The notes below the pieces were generated by a model. It was not told the origin of the DNA, made no database searches, and saw only the letters and a program-made list of their open reading frames with translations. 36,683 nt of DNA from a virus, in IMG/VR virus record IMGVR_UViG_3300024516_000005, positions 1-36,683 of that record; one strand, 5' to 3'. A program made the translations under genes and the position numbers. This document shows positions 7,005-26,235 of the stretch, one piece after another; the stretch's first letter is position 1; every line of letters begins with the position of its first letter.

Positions 7005-7053
7005 TAGAGAGTAAGGTAAATAACTTACATACTTTAATAAATAAAAACAATAC

Positions 7054-7821: not shown

Positions 7822-7841
7822 TTTAATAATAAAATAATAAT

Positions 7842-7997: not shown

Positions 7998-8003
7998 GAT
8001 AGT

Positions 8004-8132
8004 ATGAAAGAAAGAATTAGACGATTAGAAGAAAGAAAGAAATTCTTCACTATGTGGTATTACAGAAACCCAGAAATATGTTGAATACAATTAACAGAGA
8101 TAGAGAGGAGACTTAATTTATTAAGAAAGTAG
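8004..8132 (+). CDS. Hypothetical peptide, 42 aa
   Basis: Basic helical peptide with R-R-L-E-E-R-K-K-F-F-T-M-W-Y near its start; the stop is one base before the next ATG. Unknown function. Confidence 0.5.
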
Positions 8133-8133
8133 T

Positions 8134-8316
8134 ATGAATAAAGTTGAAGAGTTAATAGAGGAACAAACAAGTGTAATGGTACTAAAAAGTACACTCTTAC
8201 ATATAGATAAAAAGAAAAATACTTGTAATCCTGAACAAATAAAACAATTAGAGCAAGTACAGGAGAATATAAGAAAGAGAGTAGACTTATTAACGAAATT
8301 ATTATGAGAGAAATAA
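8134..8316 (+). CDS. Hypothetical helical protein, 60 aa
   Basis: Two predicted helices with a polar linker (H-I-D-K-K-K-N-T-C-N-P). Overlaps the YopX-like gene by 13 bp. Unknown function. Confidence 0.5.
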
Positions 8317-8696
8317 AATATCAAGCGTGGAATTGAAAGGAAATTATTATACATTCTTCTTTAGTGAATTGTTTAACAAGGCATCATACGCCGATATTAC
8401 CCATATTATTATGATGAGAAAAACATATTACTATTATTGATGGTATACCAAAAGAAGAATGGAAGCTTAGAGAATACACATGACTCAAAGACAAGAATGG
8501 TAAAGAGATATATGAAGGGGATATAATTAAGTGAAGAGTTACTGACAAAAGATGTATTGATTGACATATGATTGTTGAAAAAGAAAGAATATCTAATGAT
8601 TTTACAGATGTATATTGATATGATACTTTATGTGAGTTATGAGAAGTAATAGGCAATATATACGAAACCCCTAATTTTTTAAATAAAAACAAATAA
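8304..8696 (+). CDS. YopX family protein, 130 aa
   Basis: R-E-I-K-Y-Q-A-W-N-G-K-E at the start, Y-T-G-L-K-D-K-N-G-K-E-I-Y-E-G-D-I-I (about residues 58-75) in the middle and E-V-I-G-N-I-Y-E-T-P near the end are the defining YopX elements. Length fits the family. YopX proteins are frequent in phages of Gram-positive bacteria and have no settled function. Nine glycines are TGA-coded. Confidence 0.85.
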
Positions 8697-8872
8697 TGGA
8701 AAATTTTTCACCAGATATTATTCATAAATCCGTTACAGTTAATGACTTAAGGAATAGTTTAAAAAAAGACTATATAGAAAATAGAGATAAAAAAGATATT
8801 CCTTATTGTTGAAGTGAAGCTATTAAAATTAAAACAGATGTTTACAGGACTTTATTACTTGAATTAGTTTAA
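8696..8872 (+). CDS. Hypothetical protein, 58 aa
   Basis: Start overlaps the YopX stop (TAATG), implying translational coupling. Charged, mixed fold, one TGA-Gly. Unknown function. Confidence 0.5.
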
Positions 8873-8874
8873 TT

Positions 8875-9114
8875 ATGAAACTTAATGAACAATCAACTGA
8901 ATATTTAAATTCAGAACATGAAAGATTAGAAGAGAATAAAGATTTTCATGAATGAGATGAAATAATGCTAGAAGCTATAGATATAGCTCAGGTTAAAATA
9001 ATGGACATTCTAATGGAAAGAAAGAAACAAAAGGAAATGAATGAGGAGATAGATCATGAGATTGATGATAGAAGTTGATTCAATGATGTATTAGTAGGGA
9101 ATATTAGTATTTAA
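8875..9114 (+). CDS. Hypothetical acidic protein, 79 aa
   Basis: Glu/Asp-rich, helical, two TGA-Gly codons. Very acidic small early proteins may mimic DNA, but nothing specific is seen here. Confidence 0.5.
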
Positions 9115-9132
9115 TTTTTAATAAAAAATAAC

Positions 9133-9345
9133 ATGTATAAAATAACAATAGAGAGAGTAGAAGAAAAGGAAGTTATAAAAGAAGAATATCAGATGATTAA
9201 AAGAAAAGAATGACCTGATGACAAAGATAAATGGGGCTATGTTTCTATACCAAATATTCAAGAGGTAACGACAGAATTATATTCACAGAGTATCGAAAAA
9301 GATAGTTTTGATATAAAAAATAAAAAAGGTTATAGATGCTTTTAA
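9133..9345 (+). CDS. Hypothetical protein, 70 aa
   Basis: Beta-leaning start (Y-K-I-T-I-E-R-V) and a central G-P-D-D-K-D-K-W-G-Y-V-S-I. It resembles no family I can name. Confidence 0.5.
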
Positions 9346-9364
9346 TCAGTAATATAAAACAGTT

Positions 9365-9595
9365 ATGGTAAGACCAAGGATTATTATAGAAGAGTGAGAT
9401 GTATTCGGTAAATTAACAATAATAGAAGAACTAGATCAAAAAAAAGAAGTAAGATATTTTGATTGTAAATGTGATTGTTGAAGGATTACTTCAGTTGCAT
9501 TAACTAATCTTAGACAATTAAAAATAAAATCTTGCTGATGCTTACAAAAAGAAATAGTAATAAAGAATAATAAGAGAAGAAAACACTTAACATAA
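9365..9595 (+). CDS. Stand-alone zinc-binding module of AP2/HNH-type phage proteins, 76 aa
   Basis: G-D-V-F-G-K-L-T-I-I-E near the start, F-D-C-K-C-D-C-G in the middle and L-K-I-K-S-C-G-C-L-Q near residue 60 form a Cys4-type zinc knuckle. The same module is fused to an endonuclease-like domain in the gene at 11559-12161. Here it ends after a basic tail with no nuclease part, so it is either a free DNA-binding module or a remnant. Confidence 0.7.
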
Positions 9596-9600
9596 AAACT

Positions 9601-9780
9601 ATGGAAACAACTAATAAAAGACTAAGAATACAAGACATAACAGAATCTAATGATGTCCCGAAACTACAAAAACTACATGGGAAACTTGATATCATAAGAA
9701 CTCATAATGTTTATTATATAATTGAGTTAGAAGCTTTCAAGAAAAAGATAAAGGAACAAATAGATATTTTATTAAAATAG
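9601..9780 (+). CDS. Hypothetical protein, 59 aa
   Basis: Small mixed-fold protein without TGA codons, basic at its end. Unknown function. Confidence 0.5.
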   Translation: METTNKRLRIQDITESNDVPKLQKLHGKLDIIRTHNVYYIIELEAFKKKIKEQIDILLK

Positions 9781-9784
9781 AATT

Positions 9785-9994
9785 ATGAGCAATTTTACAA
9801 AAGAAGTATGAGAGGATAAATGGTATTGTATAGATGATCACTTTTGAAATCATAGATATTGATATGTTAAGATGACACAAGAAGAAAAAGAATCTGATAG
9901 TGCTTGGTTGTCATTTAATATTGAATGAAGAGAGGTTTTGAATGGTGAAAAGTTTAGTGAAATAATCTTGAAAAATAGCATTAAATCATTATAA
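9785..9994 (+). CDS. Hypothetical protein, 69 aa
   Basis: Aromatic-rich, with D-K-W-Y-C-I-D-D-H-F-G. Five TGA-Gly codons. Its last 27 bases overlap the promoter at 9968-9995. Confidence 0.5.
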
Positions 9995-9995
9995 T
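9968..9995 (+). promoter_or_regulatory. Promoter of the 10-kb structured RNA (TTGAAA-N16-TATAAT)
   Basis: TTGAAA (9968-9973), 16 bp, TATAAT (9990-9995). The predicted start, about 10002, falls at the first base of a palindromic stem. Confidence 0.8.
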
Positions 9996-10238
9996 ATATA
10001 GGCTATCTAGATAGCAGTGTAATGGGAAGTCTCCTTTCTTCCTGTTACACATTCATGATAGAATGAGTAGAAATTCTTGTTCTGTCACCATAAAGTGTAG
10101 GCAGTAAGCACTATAAACACCTCCAGAAATCTCGGGCTGTCGAGTAAGTGCAAGGGCTACACTATAAAGAGGCTCTATATGAACAAACGTAGGGAAATCT
10201 ATCGTTTATTCACCATACAAACTTAGGAGATACAAGAT

Positions 10239-10313
10239 ATGCAAAGTTCGATAAACAAACAAAAGAGAACAACTAACAAGAAACGAAGAAGACGCAGAAA
10301 AAGAACTAAGTAA
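10239..10313 (+). CDS. Arg/Lys-rich micropeptide, 24 aa
   Basis: AGGAGA lies 8 bases before the ATG, one of the clearest Shine-Dalgarno sites in the window. About half of the 24 residues are Arg or Lys, concentrated in the second half, so the product should bind nucleic acid or membranes. It is the only frame in the structured transcript starting near 10002. The frame could be chance in a purine-rich stretch, but the ribosome site argues otherwise. Confidence 0.5.
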   Translation: MQSSINKQKRTTNKKRRRRRKRTK

Positions 10314-10321
10314 GTAAAAAC

Positions 10322-10350
10322 TGAACTATTGGGAAATCCCTAATAGTTCA
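10322..10350 (+). terminator. Hairpin, probable weak terminator
   Basis: TGAACTATT-GGG pairs with CCC-T-AATAGTTCA around loop AAAT: 12 bp with one bulge. The following sequence, ACACTTT, is a poor U tract, so termination may be partial or the hairpin may act as a 3' stabiliser. Confidence 0.55.
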
Positions 10351-10378
10351 ACACTTTAAAATTTAATAAAAGGAAAAG

Positions 10379-10612
10379 ATGGAAGATAAAAAAAGAATTG
10401 TAGATTATGTAAGATCTCTTGATGTCTTAACAGAATACCAACAAGAAAAGATTATAAAATTACATATAGAAAAAAAGAATGAAGAGAGGAATGATTGATA
10501 TAAAGAATGAGTAGAATATGTGAGACGAGTTAAAGAAAGTGAATTAGCAGAAGAACTTGTTGAAGATTTAATGGATTTAGTAGAAAGGGTGAGAGAAATA
10601 AAAAACAGATAA
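10379..10612 (+). CDS. Hypothetical helical protein, 77 aa
   Basis: Charged coiled-coil-like protein preceded by AAAGGAAAAG, a fair ribosome site. Function unknown. Confidence 0.6.
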
Positions 10613-10842
10613 ACTAAGAGGGTTAAACTCCCTCTATAAATATATAGGATGGAGTACGTAAAGAATAAGTTATTGGATAGTTTGATACACTAGAAAAACA
10701 AAGCACCCAATATTAAATACTGACTTTTATAACAGCAACTTGTAAGTCTTAGAATTAATCAACTAAGCATCACTTAAATTGGTTATAAATAAACCCAGCT
10801 TACTCATTGCATATTCCCTTTTATATATTTAAGAATAAAAGG
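10613..10842. other. Non-coding gap
   Basis: About 230 bases without a credible gene. A 6-bp hairpin AGAGGG/CCCTCT lies right after the upstream stop, and CTTAG/CTAAG can pair further on. A 14-codon frame from 10649 has GGA before it but is otherwise unsupported. No promoter with the usual boxes is evident. Confidence 0.5.
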
Positions 10843-11103
10843 ATGAAATGATTATACGCATGATATGTATGTAGAAAATGTAATACATGAAAGAATCATG
10901 ATATGAATAGAATAAAATTACCATATAATATGGAAGAGACACAAAGAAAAAGATATTGATCTAGCATATGTGATAGTTGTAAAATAACAGTACTGAAAGA
11001 AAATGAACTAGAACTCATTCATAAATTAGAGGAAGAAAGAGAAGAACTTATAGATAAAATTGCTATAATAAATGGACACCTTACTAATATAAAATACTTA
11101 TAA
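10843..11103 (+). CDS. Small zinc-finger-like protein, 86 aa
   Basis: C-R-K-C (residues 10-13) and C-D-S-C (about 43-46) form two CxxC pairs spaced as in a treble-clef or zinc-ribbon fold; a helical C-terminal tail follows. Preceded by AAAAGG. It could be a transcription or DNA-binding factor; partner unknown. Confidence 0.65.
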
Positions 11104-11104
11104 G

Positions 11105-11554
11105 ATGAACAAAGAACTACTAAGACATATAGAAATACTAAAGACAGTACCAGAGATTAAAGAGAGTATTGAGGAATTGAAATTTGGGTGTGTTATAAAA
11201 TGGGACTTATGATATTTAAAATATTTATGAGAATTTACTGATTTTTCAGATTATGGGAATTGAGAATTATTACATAAGTTTTTAAGGGAAAGTTGATGAA
11301 CTTTTGAATGTAATCATCTACCAAAAACTGCAGAAATCATATGACAAATATCCGAAAGGTATTTAAGAATGTTTTGTAAGGAAAATCAAATATCATTTAA
11401 TTATTGACATAATTGTTTAAGGTTATGAATTGTTTGAAGTTGAATAAATACTCCGAGATATAGTGATTCAAAACCCTACATGGAACAATCAGAAGAGTTC
11501 TTTAAGAAACTAAACGATTGGATTTGCAAGGAGTTTTCTATTGATATAAATTAA
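11105..11554 (+). CDS. Hypothetical protein, 149 aa
   Basis: Starts one base after the zinc-finger gene. Mixed alpha/beta with several Cys and His residues and twelve TGA-Gly codons. No motif recognised. Confidence 0.6.
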
Positions 11555-11558
11555 AATT

Positions 11559-12161
11559 ATGAGAAAAGAATTGATTATTAAAATATGAGATAGATATAAT
11601 CATCTACTAATAGTAAAAGAATTATCACCAGTAATTACTACGCAGAAGATTAGAAGATTTGAATGTAAATGTGATTGCTGAAATACAATAAATGTACAAT
11701 TGAATAATTTAAGGAGTAATCAAACTAAATCTTGTTGATGCTTAAGAGTAAAAAATTCTTGATGAATTACTCATAGTATGAGCAGAAGTAAAATATATCA
11801 TTGTTGGAGTAATATGAAAGATAGATGTATTAACTCTAAAAATAAAAGATGGAAACATTATTGAGGACGCTGAATAACTTATGACAAAAAATGGGAAGCC
11901 TTTGAATGATTTTATGAAGATATGTGAAATGATTATAATAAATGATTAACTCTCGATAGAAGAGATAACGACTGAATCTATAATAAAGAGAATTGTCGTT
12001 GGATCACAAATGATAGACAACAGAGAAATAAATCTAATAACAGAATATACAAATGAAAATGTATAACCGAATGGTGCGAAGAATTATGATTAAATAGGAA
12101 TACAATTTATAGCAGAATAAATATATCTTGAAAAACTATTAAAGAAGCATTATGATTATAG
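11559..12161 (+). CDS. AP2/HNH-type homing endonuclease-like protein, 200 aa
   Basis: The N-terminal zinc module F-E-C-K-C-D-C-G ... K-S-C-G-C-L is followed by I-Y-H-C-W-S-N-M-K-D-R-C, Y-G-G-R-G-I, F-Y-E-D-M-G, L-T-L-D-R-R-D-N-D-G-I-Y and E-N-C-R-W-I-T (residues about 85-155). This is the conserved core of a large family of phage mobile-endonuclease-like proteins. A C-terminal helix-turn-helix-like tail follows. Free-standing homing nucleases of this kind spread by cutting related phage genomes. Nineteen glycines are TGA-coded, so it is fully adapted to this code. Confidence 0.8.
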
Positions 12162-12191
12162 AAGAGGAATTTAAAATTAATAAATAAAAGG

Positions 12192-12554
12192 ATGAAAACA
12201 ATAAACCCAGAACTGAGTAAGAGATTAGCTCCTTATTTGGAGGATGTAGAGACAGATCATGTTTTAATGGAAAATGTATTTTGAGATTATGTCCTATGAG
12301 ATGAGATATCTATGTGAACATTCAATCCAAAATGAGATAAATATAAGACTCTAACATTAGAAGAAGCTATTGATTTTATGCCTAGAGATATTTTGAATTG
12401 AGAATTAATGTTTAGTAAATATTCCTGTAGGTATGAAAATGCTTTATTAGATTGAAATCCTTGATTATTAATGTTTAATTGAAAAACTCTCCTACAAGCA
12501 ATAGAAAAGATGCTAGAATATTTACTTGATCAATGATTATTATGAAAGGAATAG
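12192..12554 (+). CDS. Hypothetical protein, 120 aa
   Basis: Acidic alpha/beta protein with ten TGA-Gly codons, preceded by AAAAGG. The next gene starts within its final codons. Unknown function. Confidence 0.6.
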
Positions 12555-12865
12555 AACAATACATAGAGTTTGCTATTAAGAATGGGTATGGATGAATAAA
12601 TAAATACCATTTCAATGGAGCTGATATAGAAGAGATACATATGAATGATGACTGAAGACCTTGGAATATAAGTACAACATATATCATCACAAGCAAGGAG
12701 TATTTAGAATCTGTTGCTAGAGGGATTACAGATCGAATGATATTAGGTTGAGAGAAAACATATACATCAGAGTTTTTAGACTTATTAACTCATACGCAAG
12801 CTATAGCTATTAGAGACAATAAGCTACCAGAATATATAAATAACTTACTCCCATGAAAACAATAA
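12542..12865 (+). CDS. Hypothetical protein, 107 aa
   Basis: Overlaps its neighbours on both sides by 13 bp, which points to translational coupling. Contains Y-I-I-T-S-K-E-Y-L-E-S-V-A-R-G. Unknown function. Confidence 0.6.
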
Positions 12866-13137
12866 TAACAAGAACTATACATCATTTTAATCCAATAAGA
12901 TGAACCACGAATAGTAAAATAGATGCAATATCTCTTTCATTGGATATATGAATTAGTGCTAGGGGTATAGAATCTAGTAATACATATATCAGTCGGACAA
13001 ATTGTGTTTATGAAGCTGAAGATCAGGAAATAGAAGAATTAAAAGAGATAAAATTAGATTTTTGGATAGATGAATTTTGAGTCTATCATAGGAATAAAAA
13101 GGATGAACAATGATGTAATACAAATATTTATAAATAA
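12853..13137 (+). CDS. Hypothetical protein, 94 aa
   Basis: Starts within the previous gene. Beta-leaning N-terminus and acidic C-terminal half. Unknown function. Confidence 0.55.
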
Positions 13138-13148
13138 CTTACTATGAG

Positions 13149-13424
13149 ATGACTAAGCAAGAAAAGATAGATGCTATATATGATAGCGATAAAATAGCAG
13201 GTAGATTCTGGGGAAATAGATTAGAGATTAATCTAAATGAAGTGTTATCAATGTTATATAATTGGCAAAGTTGAGAATGGAAGGTATTTGAAGAAAATTC
13301 ACAATTCCCTCAAATTATACTTAAAGTATGTGATTTATATGAAAATAAAAGAAAACCAATAGAAGAACAATCAGAAGAATGTATCTCGTATATTTTTAAC
13401 TTACTTAATGAATGAAAGCAATAA
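13149..13424 (+). CDS. Hypothetical protein, 91 aa
   Basis: Acidic helical protein with R-F-W-G-N-R-L-E-I-N-L-N-E-V-L near the start. An ATG at 13144 gives only eight codons, so 13149 is chosen. Last gene of the middle region. Confidence 0.6.
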
Positions 13425-13436
13425 AGAAACCCTGTA

Positions 13437-13464
13437 TTGTAATTTGTAATTAAATGAATATAAT
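13437..13464 (+). promoter_or_regulatory. Promoter of basic micropeptide unit (TTGTAA-N16-TATAAT)
   Basis: TTGTAA (13437-13442), 16 bp, TATAAT (13459-13464). Predicted start about 13471, leaving a 22-nt leader before the ATG at 13493. A terminator at 13571-13596 closes the unit. Confidence 0.75.
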
Positions 13465-13492
13465 GAGAGTACTTAATCTTAACTATATTATT

Positions 13493-13564
13493 ATGCCGAG
13501 CGATACAGTAAAAGAAAGAAAGAAAAACCTAAAAAGAAAAACTAAGGTAATTAGAAGAAAATAA
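13493..13564 (+). CDS. Basic micropeptide, 23 aa
   Basis: A 23-residue peptide with 12 Lys/Arg in a unit that has its own promoter and terminator. In-frame ATGs at 13454 and 13463 lie in or before the promoter -10 box, so 13493 is the likely start. Similar in size and charge to the peptides at 40 and 10239. No family recognised. Confidence 0.5.
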   Translation: MPSDTVKERKKNLKRKTKVIRRK

Positions 13565-13570
13565 TAACTT

Positions 13571-13596
13571 AAAAGCAGGAGAAATCTTGCTTTTTT
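13571..13596 (+). terminator. Intrinsic terminator before late genes
   Basis: AAAAGCAGGA/TCTTGCTTTT stem (one G-U pair) with GAAA tetraloop and six T residues. It separates the early/middle region from the head genes. Confidence 0.9.
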
Positions 13597-13613
13597 GTAT
13601 ATTTAGGTATAAT
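13587..13613 (+). promoter_or_regulatory. Late promoter (TTGCTT-N15-TATAAT)
   Basis: TATAAT at 13608-13613 with TTGCTT (13587-13592), or CTTGCT with 16-bp spacing. The -35 box overlaps the 3' arm of the upstream terminator. It precedes the head-gene operon and its structured leader. Confidence 0.65.
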
Positions 13614-13619
13614 AGATAT

Positions 13620-13692
13620 ATAAAACACACATAATAATAAATAGTGGGGGAGTATGTGTGTTGTATCCCTCACTTACTTTTTTAAACACACA
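13620..13692 (+). promoter_or_regulatory. Late-operon leader with pairing terminator loop
   Basis: A terminator-like hairpin AGTGGGGGA/TCCCTCACT (13643-13651/13666-13674, one G-U pair) is followed by TACTTTTTT. Its 14-nt loop carries TATGTGTGTT (13653-13662), perfectly complementary to AACACACATA (13624-13633) just upstream, near the predicted transcript start. A second AACACACA (13685-13692) lies next to the start codon at 13696. Alternative pairings could switch termination or translation of the head operon. Confidence 0.6.
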
Positions 13693-13695
13693 ATC

Positions 13696-14073
13696 ATGAC
13701 AGCACACGAATCAAAAGAGAATTACGTAATAGAAGCTATTACAAATAATGAATCAAAAGCAAAAGACATCAAAACAGAAACAAAGCCTAATTGAGATATG
13801 ACATTCTTATTCAAGGTAGGAAGAAAAAAACAAAAAATAGAGTTAACAAACTTAGAATATGAAATGGCAATGGCAAAGACTAAAAAGCCTTTTGTAGAAC
13901 CTATGCAAAAATACCTCAAAGAACTAGATGAAGCTACTTCAGCAGTAAGAGAGAAATACAAAGACTTCCTAGAAGATTACACAGAAACAGTCTCAAGAGA
14001 AACGGAAGAATTTGTAGTAAAGAAGATTAACGCTTATTTTAGCTTAGAGGATGATCTAGGTCTGATGAAATAA
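13696..14073 (+). CDS. Hypothetical late protein, 125 aa
   Basis: First gene of the late operon; helical and charged, with one TGA-Gly. An in-frame ATG at 13654 would add 14 residues encoded by the leader hairpin, but that is unlikely. Its position before the terminase genes is common for small packaging-associated proteins, but no family is recognised. Confidence 0.65.
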
Positions 14074-14076
14074 ATT

Positions 14077-14493
14077 ATGAGCAATTGAAAACAAGCATTT
14101 AAGCATTGAATGTCTAATACAAAAATATACAATGTATGGAAGCAAGTAAAGGTAAGGTGTTATAATAAAAATTCTAGTCGTTATAGCTCATATTGAGCTA
14201 GATGAATAATTGTTTCTTCCGAATGGCATGATTTTCAAAATTTTTACAGAGATATGTGACCTACTTATAAAGAAGGGTTAACTCTTGATAGAACAGATAA
14301 TAATTGAAACTATTGTAAGGAAAATTGCAGGTGGGTAACATATAAAGAGCAGATGAGAAACACAAGAAGAACACTCCTATATAAATGAAAATGTGCTAAA
14401 GATTGGTGTATGGAACTATGAATTAACTATTCCACTTTTACTACAAGAATTTATAAAGGTAAAACATTAAAGGAAGCATTAGAATTAATATAG
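14077..14493 (+). CDS. AP2/HNH-type homing endonuclease-like protein, 138 aa
   Basis: Has the same core as the gene at 11559 but without the zinc module: H-G-M-S-N-T-K-I-Y-N-V-W, R-C-Y-N, Y-G-A-R-G-I, F-Y-R-D-M-G, L-T-L-D-R-T-D-N-N-G-N-Y and E-N-C-R-W-V-T, then a helix-turn-helix-like tail. It sits as an insertion among head genes, a typical place for a free-standing homing endonuclease. Confidence 0.8.
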
Positions 14494-14509
14494 TATTAAC
14501 TAAATAAAA

Positions 14510-14815
14510 ATGGAAGATTTAAGAGAATTACATAAGTTAAAGTTTGGTAAGTATCCATCATCACAAATGAAGGAAGAAACACTTATTGCAAAGCTTAAAG
14601 AAAATATACCTGTATTAGTAAAAGATGAACCTAAAAAAGAAATACATGCTGAAGTAATATCAGATATACATTTCATAAATAAAAAAGAACCTGCAATGAC
14701 TACTATAGAAAATATGGTTACTAAAGTAATTGTACCTATAGAAGATAAAACAGTAGTTAGAATGACTACAAGAAGAAGAAACTGGTTAAAAAGACAAGAA
14801 GCACTTAATAAATAA
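14510..14815 (+). CDS. Hypothetical protein with HeH/SAP-like N-terminus, 101 aa
   Basis: D-L-R-E-L-H-K-L-K-F-G-K-Y-P-S-S-Q-M-K-E-E-T-L-I-A-K-L (within residues 3-30) resembles the short helix-extended-loop-helix segment found in small phage head proteins. The rest is low-complexity and ends in a basic R-R-R-N-W-L-K-R. No TGA codon. Confidence 0.55.
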   Translation: MEDLRELHKLKFGKYPSSQMKEETLIAKLKENIPVLVKDEPKKEIHAEVISDIHFINKKEPAMTTIENMVTKVIVPIEDKTVVRMTTRRRNWLKRQEALNK

Positions 14816-14821
14816 AAACAT

Positions 14822-15031
14822 ATGTTAGACTGGTATAAAGTATGAAATCTATGCTTTGATACAAAAGAGCAATGAGAAAAAGCAATAAAGAACTTTGAAT
14901 ACAAACAAAGAAACAATGAATTTGTAATAGAAGCTAAAGACTCCATATGAATGAGAGATTTATGGTTCAATACAGAAAAAGAAGTAAAAAACTTTATAGA
15001 TACAGCTAAGGTAGAATTAGATAATAAATAA
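14822..15031 (+). CDS. Hypothetical protein, 69 aa
   Basis: Small alpha/beta protein with F-D-T-K-E-Q-G-E-K-A-I-K-N-F. Position next to the terminases; unknown function. Confidence 0.55.
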
Positions 15032-15037
15032 TATGTT

Positions 15038-15463
15038 ATGATAGAAACAAAGAGATCAGATAAGAAAACTGATTCAAATACTCAAAAAACTGTATGAAGA
15101 AATACAGATAGGACAGAAGAGTGTGTAAGTAAATTAGAAGAGATATTAAGAATAGATTGAACTGTAAAGGAAGCTTGTAGTTATGCTAATATAGCAAGAA
15201 CAACATATTATGAATGGCTTAAAGTAGACGAGTTATTTAAGAACAGAATGGAGGATGCCTCAGAATACGCATTTATAGTAGCTAGAAAAACAATAAATAA
15301 GGCAATAAGAGAATGAGATGGAAAGCTCGCATTAGATATAATGAGAAGAAGAGATAAGAGATATAGAGACAAATCTGATAATAATATGACATGAACAGTG
15401 TCATTATTGCAATTACATGGTGAAACAGTAGAAAATGATGAAAATTGAGATGACTCAGAATAG
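15038..15463 (+). CDS. terS: Terminase small subunit, 141 aa
   Basis: I-D-G-T-V-K-E-A-C-S-Y-A-N-I-A-R-T-T-Y-Y-E-W-L (about residues 39-61) is a helix-turn-helix as in TerS DNA-binding domains. Then A-R-K-T-I-N-K-A-I-R-E-G-D-G-K-L-A-L-D and R-R-D-K-R-Y-R-D-K, also usual for the family. The acidic tail may contact TerL. It lies 25 bp before the large subunit. TerS recognises phage DNA and starts packaging. Confidence 0.8.
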
Positions 15464-15488
15464 CCATTAACTTAACTATCTGTACCGT

Positions 15489-17027
15489 ATGAATCAAATT
15501 AAACAAACAAACAAAGATATTATAAATATATGGTCTAAATCGCCTACTAAATTTATAAAAGCGATATGGTGATTAACGCCTCAGAAGATCCTTCCTAAAA
15601 ATAAGGATTTTTATTTGTCTGTATTAAAAAGAGCTGAAACAGATGATAATATCTTATGAGAATTAAAGAATGATATGTTTGAACCATTTAAAAAAGGTCA
15701 ACAGATAACATGGCAACAAGCATTAATTATAAGATCATTAGAAAGAGCTGTAAATTGAGAATGACGACGTAATATATCTATTAGAACATGACATGGTATA
15801 TGAAAATCAAATATAATGAGTAAAGTTATAATTTGGTTTCTTTTCTGTCATTATAAATCTAAGATATGATTAACTGCACCAGATGCACAAACACTTTACG
15901 ATGCTCTATTCTCAGAGGTAGGTAAAGCATTATGAGATATAAAGAAGGAGGAGATTAAATCAATGTTCGATAAGACAACAGATTATCTAAGAGTTGTATG
16001 AGCTGAGGATGATTGGTTTGCTCGTTGTAAAACAGGTAAGAAAGAAAATCCAGAAGCATTAGCTTGATTGCACGCAGATAATATTATGTTGATAGGAGAA
16101 GAAGCTTCATGAATACCAGAAGAGATATTTACATCATGACAATCAAATCTTACTTGAGATTTAAGTATATTTATATTGATATGAAATCCTCTTAGAAATA
16201 TAGGATTCTTTTATGAAACATTTGGCGATCCAGATTGGGCAAATTTACATTTTGATGGTGAACAAAGCCCTATTACATGAGATTATCCATCAAGGATATC
16301 TAAAAAGTATGGTAAAGATAGTGATGAATATAGAAGAAGAGTATGATGACATTTTCCAAGAGAGGATATACTTGACACGAAAGGTTATGTTCAATTAATA
16401 ATGAAAGATGATATAAAGAAACAAGCGTGACTTCACCTGTATTGAGAGAGAAAAATGTTATGAGTAGATTGTGCCTGAGCATGAAAAGACCTTACTACAT
16501 GGGTGTTAAGAGATAATATATGATCTGTTATAGTATGAAGTGAAAAGATAAGTGATCCACAGAGTATAGCAACCAAGACTCTTACATTAATGAAACATTT
16601 CTGAGTAGAGGCAAATGATGTTATTATTGATAATTTCTGAGCAGGAGCAAACGTATGAATGCTTTTAGCTAAGGTTTGATATATGCCAAGACCTATATAT
16701 GTGTGAGAGAAAAAAATATGAGGTAAGGAAATAATAGAGGATGGTCAAAAGATGTTAAATCTAAGATCATTACTTTATTGGAGAGCAAAAAAATGGATAG
16801 AATGATGAGGAATATTAGATGAAAATGAATCATGGAAAGAATTAGAACATATTAGATATAAAAGGAATCTAAATGATCAAATACAAATAATGAGTAAAGA
16901 AGAGATGAGAAAGGAATGATATAAAAGTCCTGATTTTGCAGATGCTCATAGTTTAACATTCATTGAAACAGATTTGAGTCCTAAAGATGATTGACCTATA
17001 AACTTTGATTATTCATGAGGATTATAA
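15489..17027 (+). CDS. terL: Terminase large subunit, 512 aa
   Basis: The Walker A loop R-T-G-H-G-I-G-K-S (residues 99-107) and Walker B M-L-I-G-E-E-A-S (200-207) define the packaging ATPase. The nuclease domain has the metal-binding acids D327 (G-V-D-C-A-G), D381 (I-I-D-N-F) and D485 (D-F-A-D-A-H). TGA encodes G101 and G105 of the ATP-binding loop, the clearest proof of the glycine code here. The protein pumps DNA into proheads and cuts it. It is of usual length and precedes the portal gene. Confidence 0.95.
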
Positions 17028-17031
17028 AAAC

Positions 17032-17059
17032 TTGCATTAATGCTTAATATCCGTATATT
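17032..17059 (+). promoter_or_regulatory. Promoter before portal (TTGCAT-N16-TATATT)
   Basis: TTGCAT (17032-17037), 16 bp, TATATT (17054-17059). The palindrome GCATTAATGC overlaps the -35 end. The leader contains ACACACATACACAA, like the AC-rich leaders at 13685 and 19011. Confidence 0.6.
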
Positions 17060-17103
17060 AAATACAACTACACACATACACAATTAAACTATAACTTAAG
17101 TTT

Positions 17104-19011
17104 ATGACTGTAAAACCAAGACTTCCGATTTCGGAAAGTGAGATAATCACACAAGTACAACAAGAAAGACAACTATGAGTTAATTATGTCGACCAAAAAA
17201 GACAACTATTCCTTGAAAGATTACAGTTATATACAAATATAGCAGAACAAGGTGGTAAATGAGATAAAGTATATGTAAGAGCTATTCGTTCTACTATGCT
17301 TACTTTAATGAGTCTGTACTATTCAGATGAAATCACAATCAATTTTGCTGGTAGACAGTTATGAGATGATGAATTAGCAGATAATTATAATAATCTTGCT
17401 GTTTTCGACTATGAAGAAATGAACATGGAGAAGTTAACTTATGATGTTCAATGGAATAGATTATTTTATTGAGTAGGTATAAGAATATTTGATCATTGGG
17501 ATGAAGTAAGAAATGTTCCTGTTTATAGATCAGTTGATCCTATTAGTTGGATTCCTGATCCATTAGGATATATAGACAATCATAGATTTCATTGATTTGA
17601 ACTAGAAGTATTAGATCATGATTTAACAACGGATATTTACTTTAATGTTGATAAAATACTTCCTTCTGAATCAGAAAGAGAAACAAGAAAAAGACAACAA
17701 CTTCAACAATCAAGACAATTAAATGGTGGAAGCTTACAAACAGACGCTCAACCTATTTATGGAATATATAATCATTATACAATCATAAAAGGTAAAAAGT
17801 ATTTAGTTACTTTAGCTAATGATCAAACTCTTCTTATTAGATTTGAGGAAGTTAAGCCAGTATATGAAGAAGAAAAGAAAGATGAATCACTCATTAAGTT
17901 TCCAGTTATACTTAATCATTATGAACCATTCAAAGATGATCCATTTGGTATATGTATTCCTGATTTATTAGAAGATAAACAAAGAATAGAACAATTATTC
18001 TTGAATTTAAATAGAATTAAAGCAGAACATGAGGCTTGGGGAGATACTTTCCTAGTTGATACATCTGCAATTAAGAATCTAAATGATTTAAGACAACACA
18101 CTCAAGGTCCTAAATATGTAAGAGCTGATCTTAGCAAAAATGCTAATCCTATTAGGGAAGTAGAAAGAGGAAGAATCAAACAAGACTCACTCAATATGGC
18201 TCAAATAATTAAAGCTCAATGAGCTGCTGATATTTGACTAGATGAAAGAGCTATAGGTTGAACTCCTGAAAGAGGGATAACTGCTACAGAGAATCAAAGA
18301 ATACAAAGAAACCAGAATGTTAAACTTGTTCTTAATAACAAAATTAACCAATGGGGTGAAAAAGATTTCTGGAGAAACTGGTTAAGAGCATATTATGAAT
18401 TTTTTCCATTCAATGGTGAGAAGAATATTATGTTACAAAACTCTTTCGGTAATGTAATACAATCAATTAAAAGAAAAGACATAGACACTTGAGCAAATAT
18501 TGATATTAAAATCATCAATAAGAGCGAAGATGAAGCATTAAAAGAACAAGAGAAAGCTGGTTTACTTGTCGTAGCTGATTTAGTATTAAATGATCCTACA
18601 TCTCCAATTATCAGTAAGACATTTGCAAAAAGAAGTATTGCAAAAGCTAATAGCTTAGATAAAGACAAAATATCTGTATTATTCCCTGCTAGTATTGAAG
18701 AAATGCAAGCAAAACTTGATCTTGAGTTACTCAATAGAGATATGGAAGTAGCTGATATAGAAGACCTTGAAGAAGATCATATGACTTATATCGTTGTTTA
18801 CGGTAAAGCAATGGATACAGATGCAAGAAATACAGCTATACAAGCAAGAAGAGAAGCATTTATATTAAGCTGACAAAGTAGAAAAGAACAAGTTCCTGAA
18901 CAATGAGGATGAGTTTTATGATCTACAGCAGCTCAGTTTACTAATGCAGCTATACAACAGTCATCAGGTTGACAGGAAGCAGCAAGTTTAGCAGATGTAA
19001 CTACTCAATAA
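17104..19011 (+). CDS. Portal protein, 635 aa
   Basis: Identified from position between TerL and scaffold/capsid, from size and from sequence style: an acidic/Gln-rich N-terminus, the segment Y-R-S-V-D-P-I-S-W-I-P-D-P and a helical Gln/Ala-rich C-terminal end. Portal proteins form the dodecameric ring through which DNA enters and leaves. About 14 glycines are TGA-coded against about 22 GGN. P22-like portals are similar in length. Confidence 0.75.
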
Positions 19012-19021
19012 CACACACATT

Positions 19022-19309
19022 ATGGTAAAAGCACAACAATTAACAGCAGAACAAAAGATTATATGAGATATGCAAAGATTACAAGCTTCTAAATGATGGA
19101 AGTATGTAATCAATGCTTTACAAGAAGATAAAGACCGTTTAATTAAACAACTTGTATATGATTTTAAATGAAAAGATATAGAAAAAGAATACAGTGAAGC
19201 TGATATTTGGAGGTATAGAATAGAACTTATAGAAGATTTAATCTTAATGCCGCAAAGAATTAAAGAAGAATATGATCCTGTTATAGATATAGACTCTCAA
19301 CGTATGTAG
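19022..19309 (+). CDS. Hypothetical head-region protein, 95 aa
   Basis: Helical protein between portal and scaffold-like genes, starting 10 bp after the portal stop in an ACACACAC context. Perhaps a head completion or portal-associated factor. No family recognised. Confidence 0.6.
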
Positions 19310-19310
19310 A

Positions 19311-19358
19311 GAGTACTCATTAAATAAATGACGATTTATCTAATGAGCAACTCTTTAT
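19311..19358 (+). terminator. Probable terminator between portal and capsid units
   Basis: GAGT-CTCATTA-ATAAA can pair with TTTAT-TAATGAG-ACTC (19311-19353) with small bulges around loop TGACGA; TTTATAT follows. The U tract is short, so it may give partial termination. Confidence 0.55.
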
Positions 19359-19405
19359 ATATCGCAGATTAAACTGCATAATAAATAATTTTTAATAAAG
19401 AAAAC

Positions 19406-19963
19406 ATGACACACGAAGATAGCCAAGACTCAGGCACAAATGAGAACGAAGTAGAAGAAGAAGTAATTGAAGAAACGACTGAGGATACTCAAGAAGATTC
19501 TGAAAATGAAACTAAGGCTGCTAAAAGTAAATCCAATGTACCTAAAATATTAGCAGAAAGAAATAAATACAAGGCAGAAGCTGAAAGATATAAATCTGAG
19601 GCTGAGTCTAAAGAATTTTCACAAGAGCAAGTTCAGGATATGATAAACGCTGCTATGGCAAATAGAGAAGCTGATAATCTCAAGAATCAAGAAAGAAATA
19701 ATTTCCTTGAGACTTATGGAGAAGAAAATCTATGAGCTGTAGACGCTGTATTACAAGAACATGAATCACTTTCTTATGAACAAGCTGCTACTATTGCAGG
19801 AATTGGGGTTACTAAACAAAGCAATCCTAATAAATATAGTTTTGCAGGAAATACTCCAGCCTCTATAAAGAAAGCTAAAACTACTCAAACTTTGTCCGAT
19901 GATGAATTAAGAGCAAGTCTAGTCGATCAATTCCAAGACGCTGGATATAGAAATGCACACTAA
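19406..19963 (+). CDS. Scaffold-like protein, 185 aa
   Basis: A very acidic Glu-rich N-terminus (residues 1-40), a coiled coil (about 50-110) and a short basic/polar C-terminus, immediately before the capsid gene, are the usual profile of phage scaffolding proteins. One TGA-Gly codon at 19733. It would shape the prohead and leave or be degraded on maturation. Confidence 0.75.
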
Positions 19964-20004
19964 TAAAATGGATTGTTAATTTATTAACAATAACCATTAT
20001 AATC

Positions 20005-20949
20005 ATGGCAACTACTACAACGTGAAATATAATGACTTCAGGTTCTTTATGAGAATTTATACAAAGAGAAGCCATTAGAAACTTTGAAGCATCTTTATTC
20101 TTCAAACAAACAGGTAAAATCGTTTCACTTCCTTTCGGAATGAATAAATATACTTTCCCAACAGTTGATAAGAAAGATGGAGCAGCTATTCAGTTAACAG
20201 AAGGTGTTACACCATCTGAAACTTCTTTCACATTAACAAATGTTGAAATTACTCTAGCTCAATTTGGTTCTTTCGCACTATTATCTGATGTTGTTATGAC
20301 TGACTCACCAGTTAATGCTGTTCAAGAAGCTGCATTTGAATTAGGAAGAGACCTTGCGAATAAAGCTGATGCTATTATTCAAGAAGCTATTGATGGAGGT
20401 ACTAATGTTATCTTTGTAGGTCAAACTTCAAGAGCTGCAATTACTGCTACTGACATTCTTACTGCTAGAGATTTAGCACAAGCAGTATCTGGACTTAAAG
20501 CTAATGATGCTCCATTCTTTGATGGACAATCATATGTTGCTATTATGCATCCTGATGTTGCATTTGATTTACAACAAGAAACAGGGACTGGTACATTTAT
20601 TGATTTAAATAAATTTACTGACGGTAATGCCATTAAACCTCTTAAAGGTGAAATGGGAACATTATTCGGTGCTAGAGTTGTTGCATCTTCAAATGTACAA
20701 TTCTTCGCTGATGCTGGTGCAGGTAGTGTAGATGTTTACCCTACTTACGTAGTTGGTAGAGATGCTTACGCAACTGTTATGGCTGGTGGAATGGAAACAT
20801 TCATAAATGGTCTAGGTAGTGAAGGTTCAGCAGATCCTTTACATCAAAGACTTTCTGTAGGTGGTAAAGTTAGACTAGCTTCTGCTATTCTAAAAGATGA
20901 TGCACTTTTCAGAATTGAATCATCTAGTTCATTAGGTGCTAACGTATAG
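20005..20949 (+). CDS. Major capsid protein, N4-gp56-like, 314 aa
   Basis: G-E-F-I-Q-R-E-A near residue 16, then P-F-G-M-N-K-Y-T-F-P, L-T-E-G-V-T-P, V-E-I-T-L-A-Q-F-G-S-F, L-S-D-V-V-M-T-D-S-P and G-R-D-L-A-N-K-A-D-A-I fit the N4-gp56 family of HK97-fold capsid proteins. It builds the icosahedral shell. Glycine use is striking: 29 GGN and only 2 TGA codons, both within the first 16 residues. A strong terminator follows. An ATTGTTAA/TTAACAAT hairpin (19972-19991) stands before the start. Confidence 0.85.
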
Positions 20950-20962
20950 TCACTTAACCATT

Positions 20963-20986
20963 AAGAGAGATTAACTCTCTCTTTTT
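20963..20986 (+). terminator. Intrinsic terminator after major capsid gene
   Basis: AAGAGAGA/TCTCTCTT with loop TTAAC and a run of T. It would set a high level of capsid transcript relative to downstream tail genes. Confidence 0.9.
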
Positions 20987-21045
20987 GCTTTATTTATCAA
21001 TACTGGTAGATAGAGCAGAGAGAATTTAATAATTAATTATTCATC

Positions 21046-21747
21046 ATGGATGTTAATACAGCTAGAGATTTATGAAGAACTTTAACACACACTGATTCTG
21101 ACCAGATAACAGATGCACAAGCATTACAATACTTAAATATTGTTTATCATAATATAGCAAATGCTATAATGGAAATAGATGAAGATTATTTCTGGGATAT
21201 ATTCACTACAAGTACTGTACTTGATCAAAATGAATATACTTTTTCTATTGCATCATCTACTTCTCCTTGAATGAAGAAAATACAAAGAATACAGATTAAA
21301 TGGGTTGCTACGGATGATTTTCAATCATTAATACCTTCTGATACTCTTGCAAGCTATCCAACCTCTACAGATAGAATAAATACTAATTTTTCTACTTCTG
21401 AAGGTTTCTTTGATATAAAAGATGGAAGTTATTTTATATATCCTGCTCCTGCTGAGGCTGTAACTGATTGAATAGAGGTACAGGCTACGACAACACTTGT
21501 TGATTTGATTGCATGAGGGGCTGAAACGACAGTATTTCCAAGAAATAGTGAATTAAGAGACTATCATCAATTACTTTCTATTTGAATGAAACAATACATA
21601 TATAGTCAACAAGGATTAACGAGTGATAAGAATGATTCTATTAATGAATATAAAGCAGCATTAGACGATATGCTTGAGACTGTTAAGGATAGATTCTTTA
21701 ATCCAGTTGTAGCAGTATTACCAAACTCAATAAATCTTAAAAACTAG
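21046..21747 (+). CDS. Head-tail adaptor protein, 233 aa
   Basis: N-terminal helices (A-R-D-L-G-R-T-L, A-L-Q-Y-L-N-I-V-Y-H) followed by a beta insertion and a C-terminal helical part, directly downstream of the capsid gene, match the common adaptor/connector layout of podovirus-like genomes (P22 gp4- or T7 gp11-like role). It would dock below the portal. Assigned by layout and position. Confidence 0.65.
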
Positions 21748-21750
21748 AAT

Positions 21751-23184
21751 ATGGCTAAAATAACTTATCAATGATTTGAAAAATGAATATCAATAGATGA
21801 CTATACTACAAAAGCTCATCAAGTTTTATTCAGTACTTGACTAGATTTAAACAGTGATACTTATTCGGTACAATTAGAAGCTAAACTCACAGAATGAATC
21901 ACTACTAACTGAAAAGATATGGAAGGTTGGTTTTATGTTGAAGATTCTGGATGAAATAGAACAGCAGTAGCAGCATGAGAATCATGACAAGTATATAAAG
22001 TTACATGAACTAATGACACTCCAGACTTTACATTTGCAGATGGTAGATTAGTACATAATACAATAAATGTATGAGGATTTGTTTATTATATAAGATGATC
22101 AACTTCAAGTGCAGTTCGTATAGGTAAAATGGATGAAAACAATACATGAATTACATGAGTTACAGAAACACTTTCTACTACATGAGATACGATCCCTACA
22201 TGAACATTAAGAAGTACATATCCTGTATACAATTTCAATGATGAGATACTACTGATTGGGATTTGATGAACATTAATGACACTAGATTCAAATGATGTTG
22301 TAATTAATTTTGAAATATTTTCAGATGCTATAGTGGGGATAGAAAAATCATGAAGCCAATTTAAAATATATTCAAGTAATTGACAAGTATCATTCTGGTC
22401 TTTTGGAGCTTCTAGTATAAATGAATCATACCAAGTCAATGATTTCATCAGATGATCAATAAACAGAGGTTGAGTAGACTTTATGGTGTCTGGTTTTAAT
22501 CCGGATCAAACTAATATAAGCTTAACTTCTTGATATCAAGCTCCTATTATCGCTTTTAAATATGATAGTGATAGGTTAACCGTACCAAAGTTTAAAACAG
22601 TAATGGACAGGCCTACTCAATTAGCTAGAATATGAGATACAATATATTTTACTAATGAAGATGACACTAATAATCAATCATTATGGAGTTATGGGAATAA
22701 ACAGAGAGCATTATGAGATGCTTTTCAAGAAATAGTACTTCCTCATCCTACAAATGGTAGAATAAAGAGTCTATTTGGATTTCAATGACCTTGATTAGAC
22801 ACTATACATATGGGCGTTATAATAAATGGTACAAGACAGATAGCAAAATATGAAATAGGTTGAACAAGGCAGACAACATGACATATGATATTAAATACTT
22901 TAGACTGATGAGATAGAACAGTTAAAAAGAAAATAAGAAGAATATTTGTTACTACGAGTTGAACTTCTACAGATAATCCTATAAAAATAAGCGCTAGTTA
23001 TAATCAATGAGCATTCGTAGATATAAGAACAATCACTTCAGGTTGAGATTCTACCAGAACTATAATTTCAGAACATACTGAAAGCTGGATTGACGTTAAC
23101 TTTAGAATAGATTTAACTGATTGATGAACTGGAACTCCTAAGTTTCATTGAATGAGAGTAGTTTATGATATAATTGAAGACTAA
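21751..23184 (+). CDS. Tail hub/needle-like beta-propeller protein, 477 aa
   Basis: Long beta-rich protein with repeated turns such as F-N-D-E-I-L-L-I-G-I-G-G-T, G-D-T-I-Y-F-T-N and W-S-Y-G-N, which look like propeller blades. It sits just after the adaptor, where podoviruses encode the tail tubular or stabilisation protein. Rich in TGA-Gly. Exact family not identified; could instead be a tail spike base. Confidence 0.55.
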
Positions 23185-23669
23185 TGGCAAAAGAAAAAGA
23201 ATTTAAACCAGATTTCCTTAAAGAAGAAAGCTTTGAATCTGATATACCATGATTATGACCTGAGATGCTTGATACTGATGCAAGTGTAAGATGAAGTTGA
23301 TCATGAAAAGTAGAAACTCTTACATTTACTAGAGCCTCTTCTGTATGAACATGAGATCAATCATTTACTTGATTTTCATTTACTCCTACTCATTATACAA
23401 TATTAGCGTGGAGAGACGCAACATGATTAGAGTGTATATCTCATGCTTGAATAGACGCTGATTGAACTCAATGGTGAACTAGTATAAGACCGAATTGAGC
23501 TTCTCAGATAGAAAGTGCTAATACAACAAGTGTATTTAGGGTATTCTTTACCAATGCTTGAGGTTGAGATACAAGAGCAACCCATGTAAGTTTAGATTCT
23601 GGTTGAATAACAGTTAATGTTGCTGCATCAGCTGAAAACATTAAACTTACTATAACTTGTTATTGATAG
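23184..23669 (+). CDS. Small beta-rich tail protein, 161 aa
   Basis: Starts in the TAATG overlap with the previous gene. The pattern S-V-G-T-G-D-Q-S-F-T-G-F-S-F-T-P-T-H-Y-T-I-L-A-W-R resembles the 'G-x-Q-x-I-x-G-x-G-F-x-P' beta domain common in phage tail or decoration proteins. Most glycines are TGA-coded. Confidence 0.55.
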
Positions 23670-23684
23670 AAAAATACATATACT
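23657..23684 (+). promoter_or_regulatory. Promoter before the 841-aa protein gene (TTGTTA-N16-TATACT)
   Basis: TTGTTA (23657-23662), 16 bp, TATACT (23679-23684). It overlaps the end of the preceding gene and leaves a leader of about 20 nt before the ATG at 23710. Confidence 0.7.
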
Positions 23685-23709
23685 TTAATTAATAACTCAC
23701 CTGAAAAAA

Positions 23710-26235
23710 ATGGTAGTAAAAGATAAAACATGAGCAGGAAGTCTTTTAGAAGAAGAAACTAAAAAAGTTACTTGAACTAGATGAACTGCTACATCAACAA
23801 CTCCTTTAATCAAAAGTACAGAAGTAATTGAAGAAGCTCCTATTGAAGAAGTCCAAATAGAAGAAACTGCTCCTTTACAAAGGCCAACAATAGAATGAGC
23901 TGAGCCTTTAATTAAAAGTACTGAGGTAGTTGAACCAGCTCCTATTGAAGAAGAAGTTCCAGTAGTAGAACCTACAGTTACTCCAAAGCCTTCTGTTAAA
24001 AGAACTAAAGTAGCTGCTGAAGAAGTTCCAGTAATGGAAAAACCTACTCCTATAGAATCAGCAGAAGATATCAAATCTAAACAATTAGATATTCAAGCAA
24101 AAGAAGATGATCAAATTACAAAGGATCAAGAAAAAACAATTAATTCTTTTACTTTAGCTGTTCAATCTGGTAACTTAGAAGAAGCAAGAGATTTAGCTAT
24201 TAAGAATCCTGATTTAAGAGGAGTATTTAATAGTTCTATCAGAGCTACATTATGAAATAAATCTAATGTAGAATTTTTTAGTAAATTCAATTGAGCTTCA
24301 AATGATGAAATGAAATCAGCTGCTGAATCAGGTGATCTTGTTGTATGAAGTAAACAATATAATCTATTACCAGAAGAACAAAGAAGAAGATTTGAACAAT
24401 TCAATAAATTAAACGCTTCTAAAAGAACTGATTTCGCATCAGACAACGCTAATATTATTTCATTAACAGATTTATGAGAAAAATCACAATGATTACCTAG
24501 TTTTGATTTAAGGGCTAAAATAGAAGAAGCAAGAAATAATCCTGAGTTACTTCAAACAAGAACAGACTTAGAATCACTACAAAATGAAATAAATGAGTTT
24601 GATGATGCTCTAGAATCATTAGAGGATGATATTATAGATACCAATCCTAAACTCCCTAGAAGTGCTATCCTTGCATTAGTATCTAGACAATCTAAAGATA
24701 TAATTAGAAATAAGAATACTAAAGTAAATCAATATAATGCTAAACTAGGTACTTATAAGGATTTAAAAAGTGATATTGATATGGAACTCAAAATATTACA
24801 ATTTGAATCATCACAAGAAAAAGAAATATATAAAACTAATCTTGCTATATTTGAAAAAAGAAGAGGTGAGATGAGAGAAGATGAAAAACTTGAATTTTTG
24901 GCAGAAAATAAAAAGATAGCAGCAGATAATCAATTAATAAGACAAAAAGAATTAGCTGAGTTTAATTCTAGTTTAAGAGAGAATAATAATACATGAGGTA
25001 AATATATAGATAATGGGAAATGAGATATAATTTATGTTAAGGATTGAAGGGAAGTAAGTGTTTTAACTTGATTATGAAAATCTGTATGAACTAGTGAGGA
25101 CGATAACTATTCTTATCAAATCAAAACTAATGAGGATGGCACTCATACTGTATTCTGATTACCTAAAAAAGGACAGAATATATTCCAACAAACATTTGGT
25201 GCTACATGAGAAGAGTCTACAAGCTGGATTAAATGAGTATGACAAGGGAATATAACTTCTTATTGATGATCTCATGATAGATTTGAATGATTAGATATAG
25301 ACGGTAATATATGAGACCCTGTATCTCTTCCAATATGAGGAAAAGTTAAAACTATGGTTAATCATCCTTTATATTGAAGAACAATGATAATCTCTACTGA
25401 GGATTGATGAGAAATAAGATTCTCTCATATGGATGAGTTTTTTATTAAAGTTTGAGAAACACTTACTAAGTGAAGTATTATATGAACTATAGGTAATACA
25501 GGTAATGTGCTTAAATTAGATTGAAATAAACCAAGTGCAGCAGAATTAAAAGCATGATTTGGTTCTCACTTAGATATTGTTAGTAAAGATTCAGATGGAA
25601 AAACGAGAAGTGCTAAACAAACTGAAGAATATCTTAATAATCTAGGTATAGAAAAAAAAGAGGTTAGCGATAAACTCTCAAGAGATCAGCAAATTTTCTT
25701 TAATCAACAACAAACTAAGTTTAAATCAGACCCACAAGTAAAAGCATTTGAATCTGCGTTAGCTTCTGGTTGAGACTTAATCAGATCTTTAGATTCTGTT
25801 AGCTGACCATGAGATGTTGCTGCTATATTCCAATTTATGAAAACTCTTGACCCTGCTTCTGTAGTAAGAGAAAGTGAATTTGCAGTTGCTGCTAATACAG
25901 CATGAGTTACAGCTAAGCCATGACTACTATTATGAAGAATATCAGAAGGTCTATTATTAAACGATATACAAAGAAAAGAATTTTGAAGACTTGCATTTGA
26001 ATTTATTAAGAATAAAGGTAAGTTATATGATATAAAATATGATGATATGGCTAGAGTTCTCGCAAATTCTGATATATGATGAACAAATCTACCAACTAGA
26101 ATAACAGACTTAATATGAGATTTCAAAACTAATGATATAAAAGAGATTAGCTGAAATAAGACTTATACATCTAATACTTGATTTCAGTGGGATTCTACAT
26201 GAATAAAAGATACACAAAATAGCTTCTTTAAATAA
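23710..26235 (+). CDS. Large virion protein with degenerate M23 peptidase domain, 841 aa
   Basis: The N-terminal 110 residues are a Pro/Glu-rich linker with two imperfect P-L-I-K-S-T-E-V repeats. A long coiled coil spans about residues 240-430. A LytM/M23-like domain follows at about 510-640: F-E-G-L-D (D529), G-D-P-V-S-L-P-I-G-G-K-V, R-F-S-H-M-D (H573), G-x-x-I-G-T-I-G-N-T-G and G-S-H-L-D (H620). The usual first His ligand is Phe here, with H522 three residues before it, and the final HxH is H-L-D. A helical C-terminal part (650-841) completes it. Likely ejected with DNA or part of the tail, loosening peptidoglycan at entry. Confidence 0.7.

What the first reader, a model, noticed from the sequence alone, without database searches (positions are those of the whole stretch)
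15783..15809. TGA is read as glycine throughout: a phage of Gracilibacteria/Absconditabacteria
With TGA as glycine the genome becomes about 75 packed genes. The terminase P-loop reads G-H-G-I-G-K-S, with both outer glycines encoded by TGA, while TGG is used normally for tryptophan. TAA and TAG still act as stops, with the next start close by. Established knowledge: code 25 is restricted to these CPR lineages. Complete phages of these hosts are poorly described.
Basis: partly seen in the sequence, partly recalled or inferred. Interest (0 to 1): 0.85.

Follow-up and report, generated by a model that had tools for sequence, protein, structure and literature searches.

The report
Phage reading stop codon as glycine
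This is an apparently complete small tailed-phage genome in which the usual stop codon TGA means glycine, so it almost certainly infects the odd tiny bacteria (Gracilibacteria or Absconditabacteria) that share this code; such phages have been reported before, so it is a good new example rather than a new kind of thing.

Summary
Confirmed. The window is a whole IMG/VR record (36,683 bp, exact 99-bp end repeat, so circular or complete). ORFs of at least 60 aa cover 28% of it under code 11 and 83% when TGA is read through.

TGA means glycine, not tryptophan. In the terminase, TGA columns aligned with six standard-code phage terminases hold Gly 75 times and Trp 0 times; Gly beats Ala by 16 log units and Trp by 40. 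Two relative lineages in IMG/VR (82-85% identical capsid and portal, also TGA-dense) swap TGA with GGN at 118 aligned positions and with TGG at one.

No tRNA is encoded, so decoding must use a host tRNA-Gly(UCA). By published surveys only Gracilibacteria and Absconditabacteria have this code. The host was not tested directly: their genomes and spacers were out of reach.

Code-25 phages of these hosts are already published (PMC10746230, PMC13059738), so this is a new member of a known kind.

Two additions: the major capsid gene avoids TGA (2 of 31 Gly codons against 71% elsewhere, p=2e-13), suggesting the reassigned codon is disfavoured in a highly expressed gene; and one sister lineage carries CGG at a Trp position, hinting at a second reassignment (one site only).

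The parts
1..36683 (+). complete phage genome, code 25
   Evidence: ORF cover 28% (code 11) against 83% (TGA read); record is the whole virus contig
1..99 (.). end repeat, identical to 36585-36683
   Evidence: exact 99-nt direct repeat
36585..36683 (.). end repeat, identical to 1-99
   Evidence: exact 99-nt direct repeat
15783..15809 (+). terminase P-loop RTGHGIGKS with TGA at 15789-15791 and 15801-15803
   Evidence: sequence; both TGA columns Gly in six homologues
15489..17027 (+). terminase large subunit, 512 aa, 35 TGA
   Evidence: phrog_5902 1e-37, phrog_2 1e-25; tblastn to phage terminases
15038..15463 (+). terminase small subunit
   Evidence: phrog_4102 5e-12
17104..19011 (+). probable portal, 635 aa, 14 TGA / 22 GGN
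   Evidence: position between terminase and capsid; 82-85% identical in relatives; no family match
19406..19963 (+). probable scaffold protein
   Evidence: position before capsid, acidic and coiled; conserved in relatives
20005..20949 (+). HK97-type major capsid protein; 2 TGA / 29 GGN
   Evidence: phrog_1357 6e-49, PF25209 over cut-off; codon bias p=1.8e-13
23710..26235 (+). virion protein with M23 peptidase domain, 45 TGA
   Evidence: PF01551 1e-11
31680..32198 (+). tail protein, C-terminal domain shared with Gordonia phages, 20 TGA
   Evidence: phrog_8780 4e-25; about 50% identity; TGA columns Gly, no Trp
32209..32937 (+). concanavalin-like lectin domain protein, 25 TGA
   Evidence: PF13385 5e-20
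3404..3784 (+). RusA-like Holliday junction resolvase
   Evidence: PF05866 3e-11
4870..5451 (+). Rad52-like annealing protein
   Evidence: PF04098 4e-5, over cut-off
5538..5975 (+). Gp157-like protein
   Evidence: PF05565 3e-11
35802..36377 (+). NUMOD4/HNH endonuclease; motif YE-TGA-IYQVSNL-TGA-RVKSL
   Evidence: PF07463 2e-14; sequence

Best explanation
The window is the complete genome of a tailed phage (Caudoviricetes) written in genetic code 25: TGA = glycine, TGG = tryptophan, and TAA and TAG = stop. The phage encodes no tRNA. Its mRNAs are therefore decoded by a host that supplies a glycyl-tRNA with anticodon UCA and lacks a release factor acting on UGA, that is, a Gracilibacterium or Absconditabacterium. 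TGA is the commonest glycine codon in most genes (about 70%). In the major capsid gene it is avoided and replaced by GGT/GGA, most likely because a single tRNA-Gly(UCA) reads TGA more slowly or less accurately and this gene is under translational selection. Shown: the code, the lack of tRNAs, the relatives and the capsid bias. Inferred: the host, its tRNA and release-factor state, and the reason for the bias.
For: ORF cover 28% under code 11 against 83% with TGA read. TerL TGA columns in six standard-code homologues: Gly 75, Ala 18, Trp 0; 12 of 17 well-conserved columns are Gly. Summed log-odds over TerL and a tail protein: G +25.3, next A +4.2, W -34.6; in TerL, controls recover G for GGN, W for TGG and R for AGR. 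Close relatives in IMG/VR are also TGA-dense (code 11 0.09-0.42, TGA read 0.74-0.92). TGA<->GGN exchanges: 30+18 with lineage B and 18+52 with lineage C, against one TGA<->TGG. No tRNA in window or relatives. TGA=Gly in prokaryotes is reported only for Absconditabacteria and Gracilibacteria (PMC8629427). Capsid bias: 2 TGA / 29 GGN, p=1.8e-13, with capsid preference for ATT, GTT and TTC; kept in lineage B (2/29), relaxed in C (8/23).
Against: No host genome, CRISPR spacer or prophage link was found; the one bacterial-genome scan returned only a distant capsid relative in a Clostridiales genome. TGA share does not track Ile/Val codon choice across genes (Spearman -0.04), so the translational-selection reading rests on the capsid gene, with the portal as a weaker second case.
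Confidence: 0.9

Rival explanations
1. TGA encodes tryptophan (code 4), as in Mycoplasma or Spiroplasma phages.
For: Gives exactly the same open reading frames; low G+C (28-33%).
Against: No Trp among the residues in TGA columns of TerL or the tail domain; W is -34.6 against G +25.3. TGG is used at a normal frequency and sits on Trp columns. One TGA<->TGG exchange against 118 TGA<->GGN.
Confidence: 0.01
2. The phage infects a standard-code host and recodes TGA itself, with its own suppressor tRNA, as some large gut phages do.
For: Phages that differ in code from their host exist (introduction of PMC10746230).
Against: No tRNA found by ARAGORN or Rfam models in the window, nor by ARAGORN in the relative loci. 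TGA is in early and late genes alike, not confined to late genes.
Confidence: 0.05
3. The capsid gene is poor in TGA not because of translational selection but because it was acquired from a standard-code phage and its GGT codons (two changes away from TGA) have not yet been converted.
For: Capsid homologues are in standard-code phages at about 30% identity; lineage C has converted 7 more sites.
Against: The bias is shared by lineages that have diverged to 85% protein identity, while portal glycines switch freely between the same genomes; the capsid also favours ATT, GTT and TTC.
Confidence: 0.3

Closest known systems
Code-25 phages and prophages of Absconditabacteria and Gracilibacteria (Liu et al. 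2023, PMC10746230)
   Same: High density of in-frame TGA, almost no gene annotations under code 11, tailed-phage genes, IMG/VR contigs
   Different: Those were tied to hosts by CRISPR spacers; this one is not. Whether this very record is in their list could not be checked (their tables are held elsewhere)
RSA-ATP1, complete 39,071-bp code-25 phage of Absconditicoccaceae (PMC13059738)
   Same: Similar size, circular, code 25, RusA-like and HNH genes, tailed-phage morphogenesis genes
   Different: RSA-ATP1 carries four tRNAs including tRNA-Gly(TCA); this phage has none.
IMG/VR relatives: lineage B (L011-L014, L041) and lineage C (L015-L017, L052-L053, L059)
   Same: 82-85% identical capsid and portal proteins, same gene order from portal to tail, same code
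   Different: Mostly fragments; lineage C has a different terminase large subunit and a gene matching phage endolysin families
Bacillus megaterium phages Pony/Page (capsid) and Gordonia phages Reyja/Nubi (tail domain)
   Same: Homologous capsid (about 30%) or tail domain (about 50%)
   Different: Standard code, other hosts

Membership tests
Genetic code 25 (SR1 and Gracilibacteria) | TGA encodes glycine | tested here: met
   TerL and tail-domain column tallies and TGA<->GGN exchange
Genetic code 25 (SR1 and Gracilibacteria) | TAA and TAG remain stops | tested here: met
   50 ORFs end in TAA (38) or TAG (12), with the next start close by
Genetic code 25 (SR1 and Gracilibacteria) | TGG remains tryptophan | tested here: met
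   TGG columns in TerL favour W by 12 log units over the next residue
Genetic code 25 (SR1 and Gracilibacteria) | tRNA-Gly with anticodon UCA available and no RF2 in the decoding cell | not testable with these tools
Caudoviricetes (tailed phage) | terminase and HK97-type capsid | tested here: met
   PHROG and Pfam matches
Caudoviricetes (tailed phage) | portal protein | tested here: inconclusive
   assigned by position only; no family match, model too poor (pLDDT 34.5)
Phage of Gracilibacteria/Absconditabacteria | spacer match, prophage or host-gene link to these bacteria | not tested
   genome scan returned no such genome; the genome set could not be centred on these clades
Code-25 phage with its own tRNA-Gly(UCA), as RSA-ATP1 | tRNA-Gly(UCA) gene in the phage | tested here: not met
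   no tRNA in the window

The most novel reading that the evidence does not exclude
This phage group shows that the reassigned TGA is a second-class glycine codon in its host, purged from the most expressed gene although it dominates elsewhere, and it hints that the phages track a further, CGG-to-tryptophan, reassignment in some Gracilibacteria. Phage codon choice would then be a readout of how far each reassignment has gone.
Probability: 0.25. Interest if true: 0.6.

Novelty: new member of a known kind. Interest (0 to 1): 0.42.

Why it matters
Phages of code-25 bacteria are read wrongly by standard pipelines: with code 11 most of this genome's genes disappear. A complete genome with two relative lineages gives a clean set for measuring how a virus uses a reassigned stop codon. 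The capsid gene's avoidance of TGA makes testable the idea that a reassigned codon stays less efficient even when it is the commonest choice.

Tried and rejected
TGA = Trp: rejected by column tallies and codon exchange. Phage-encoded suppressor tRNA: none found. Host by genome scan with the capsid alignment: one distant Clostridiales hit only. Centring the genome set on Patescibacteria by name, or drawing relatives of a virus record: not possible. Portal against annotated phages: no match. Window terminase against its close IMG/VR relatives: no match, because lineage C carries a terminase of another family. Structure models of portal and tail protein: confidence too low to use (pLDDT 34.5 and 39.5), so the virion type (short or long tail) stays open. 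A genome-wide link between TGA use and Ile/Val codon choice: none. Nucleotide similarity of 15489-23184 to named phages: none.

Full report
What was checked. The window is a complete IMG/VR virus record of 36,683 bases with an exact 99-base direct repeat at its ends, the usual mark of a circular assembly or of terminal redundancy. ORFs of at least 60 aa cover 28% of the genome under code 11, 83% when TGA is read, 37% when TAG is read and 66% when TAA is read; only the TGA reading puts most ORFs (42 of 51) on one strand together with high cover and long ORFs. Over 50 called ORFs there are 518 TGA, 94 TGG and 239 GGN codons, with TAA (38) and TAG (12) as stops.

What TGA means. Reading TGA as Gly or as Trp gives the same ORFs, so homologues must decide. 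I masked TGA as X and aligned the terminase with six standard-code phage terminases (found). TGA columns held Gly 75, Ala 18, Arg 13 and so on, and no Trp; of 17 columns with a clear majority 12 were Gly, including both P-loop columns. The C-terminal domain of a tail protein (31680-32198), about 50% identical to Gordonia phages, gave Gly 15, Ala 8, Trp 0. Scoring all 20 residues over these columns gave G +25.3, A +4.2, S -1.7, W -34.6. As controls in the terminase, GGN columns gave G, TGG gave W and AGR gave R. At 35802 a NUMOD4-family protein reads YE-TGA-IYQVSNL-TGA-RVKSL; from general knowledge of that motif both TGA sit where glycine is expected.

Relatives. Scans of IMG/VR with the capsid and portal found two related lineages: B (L011-L014, L041; 85% identical capsid and portal proteins) and C (L015-L017, L052-L053, L059; 82%). 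Both are TGA-dense and poorly readable under code 11. With TGA again masked, TGA codons of the window face TGA or GGN far more than any other residue. TGA<->GGN exchanges number 30+18 with B and 18+52 with C, against a single TGA<->TGG. This evidence comes from synonymous change and does not depend on distant homologues.

How it works. No tRNA gene was found by ARAGORN or by Rfam models at E<=1 in the window, nor by ARAGORN in seven relative loci. The phage must then borrow the decoding tRNA from its host. Among prokaryotes TGA=Gly is reported only for Absconditabacteria and Gracilibacteria (PMC8629427), where the UGA-decoding tRNA-Gly(UCA) is the expected partner. The host is therefore inferred with fair confidence but was not tested.

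Uneven use. TGA is about 70% of glycine codons outside the capsid gene but 2 of 31 in it (p=1.8e-13) and 14 of 36 in the portal (p=1.7e-4). The capsid gene also prefers ATT, GTT and TTC where the other genes prefer ATA, GTA and TTT, which points to translational selection in a highly expressed gene (high expression of a capsid gene is general knowledge, not measured here). In lineage B the capsid is again 2/29, in lineage C 8/23, while portal glycines switch freely (C 30/9). Across genes TGA share does not follow Ile/Val codon choice, so this is a capsid effect, with the portal as a weaker second case, not a genome-wide gradient. Slow conversion of an imported capsid gene is a live alternative.

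A possible second reassignment. At portal alignment column 132 lineage C has CGG where the window and B have TGG. CGG=Trp has been predicted for Absconditabacteria (with CGA) and for some Gracilibacteria (PMC8629427). It is one site, one mutation away from TGG, and the window's own CGA codons sit in arginine-like contexts (judged by eye), so this is only a hint. If CGA is arginine, the fit is better with Gracilibacteria than with Absconditabacteria.

Relation to the known. Code-25 phages of these bacteria, spacer-linked and in IMG/VR, were described in PMC10746230, and a complete one with its own tRNA-Gly(TCA) in PMC13059738. The present genome belongs to that known kind; it differs from RSA-ATP1 in having no tRNA. 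No close relative was found among 50,697 annotated phage records at the DNA level over the 15489-23184 region.

Noticed in passing
15038-17027; L053:1698-3901: The terminase large subunit differs in family between the window and lineage C although the neighbouring portal and capsid are 82% identical: a modular swap.
   Followed up: partly
whole window, gene starts: Only 2 of 63 ATG starts have a Shine-Dalgarno-like motif; upstream regions are A/T-rich with A at -3 (46/63) and T at -1 (39/63), suggesting SD-independent initiation.
   Followed up: partly
4514-4558 and 6961-7005: 45-nt repeat (89%) with a sigma-70-like promoter (TTGCAA ... TATACT) overlapping an inverted repeat ATTGCA...TGCAAT; the second copy directly follows an HTH regulator gene (6722-6964), so a repressor operator/promoter pair is plausible.
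   Followed up: partly
28499-29122: C-terminus of a 957-aa probable virion protein weakly resembles ADP-ribosyltransferase domains (ART-PolyVal E=0.003, below the curated cut-off).
   Followed up: partly
3100-3417, 11559-12161, 14077-14493, 35802-36377: Four HNH or homing-endonuclease-type genes in a 37-kb genome; 11559 and 14077 share PHROG families and a 49-nt repeat (12046/14378).
   Followed up: no
9995-10378, 10613-10806, 13425-13653: Stretches without convincing ORFs in an otherwise packed early region.
   Followed up: no
L053:3971-5869, portal alignment column 132: CGG in lineage C where the window and lineage B have TGG (Trp); may reflect a CGG=Trp reading or a plain Trp-to-Arg change.
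   Followed up: partly
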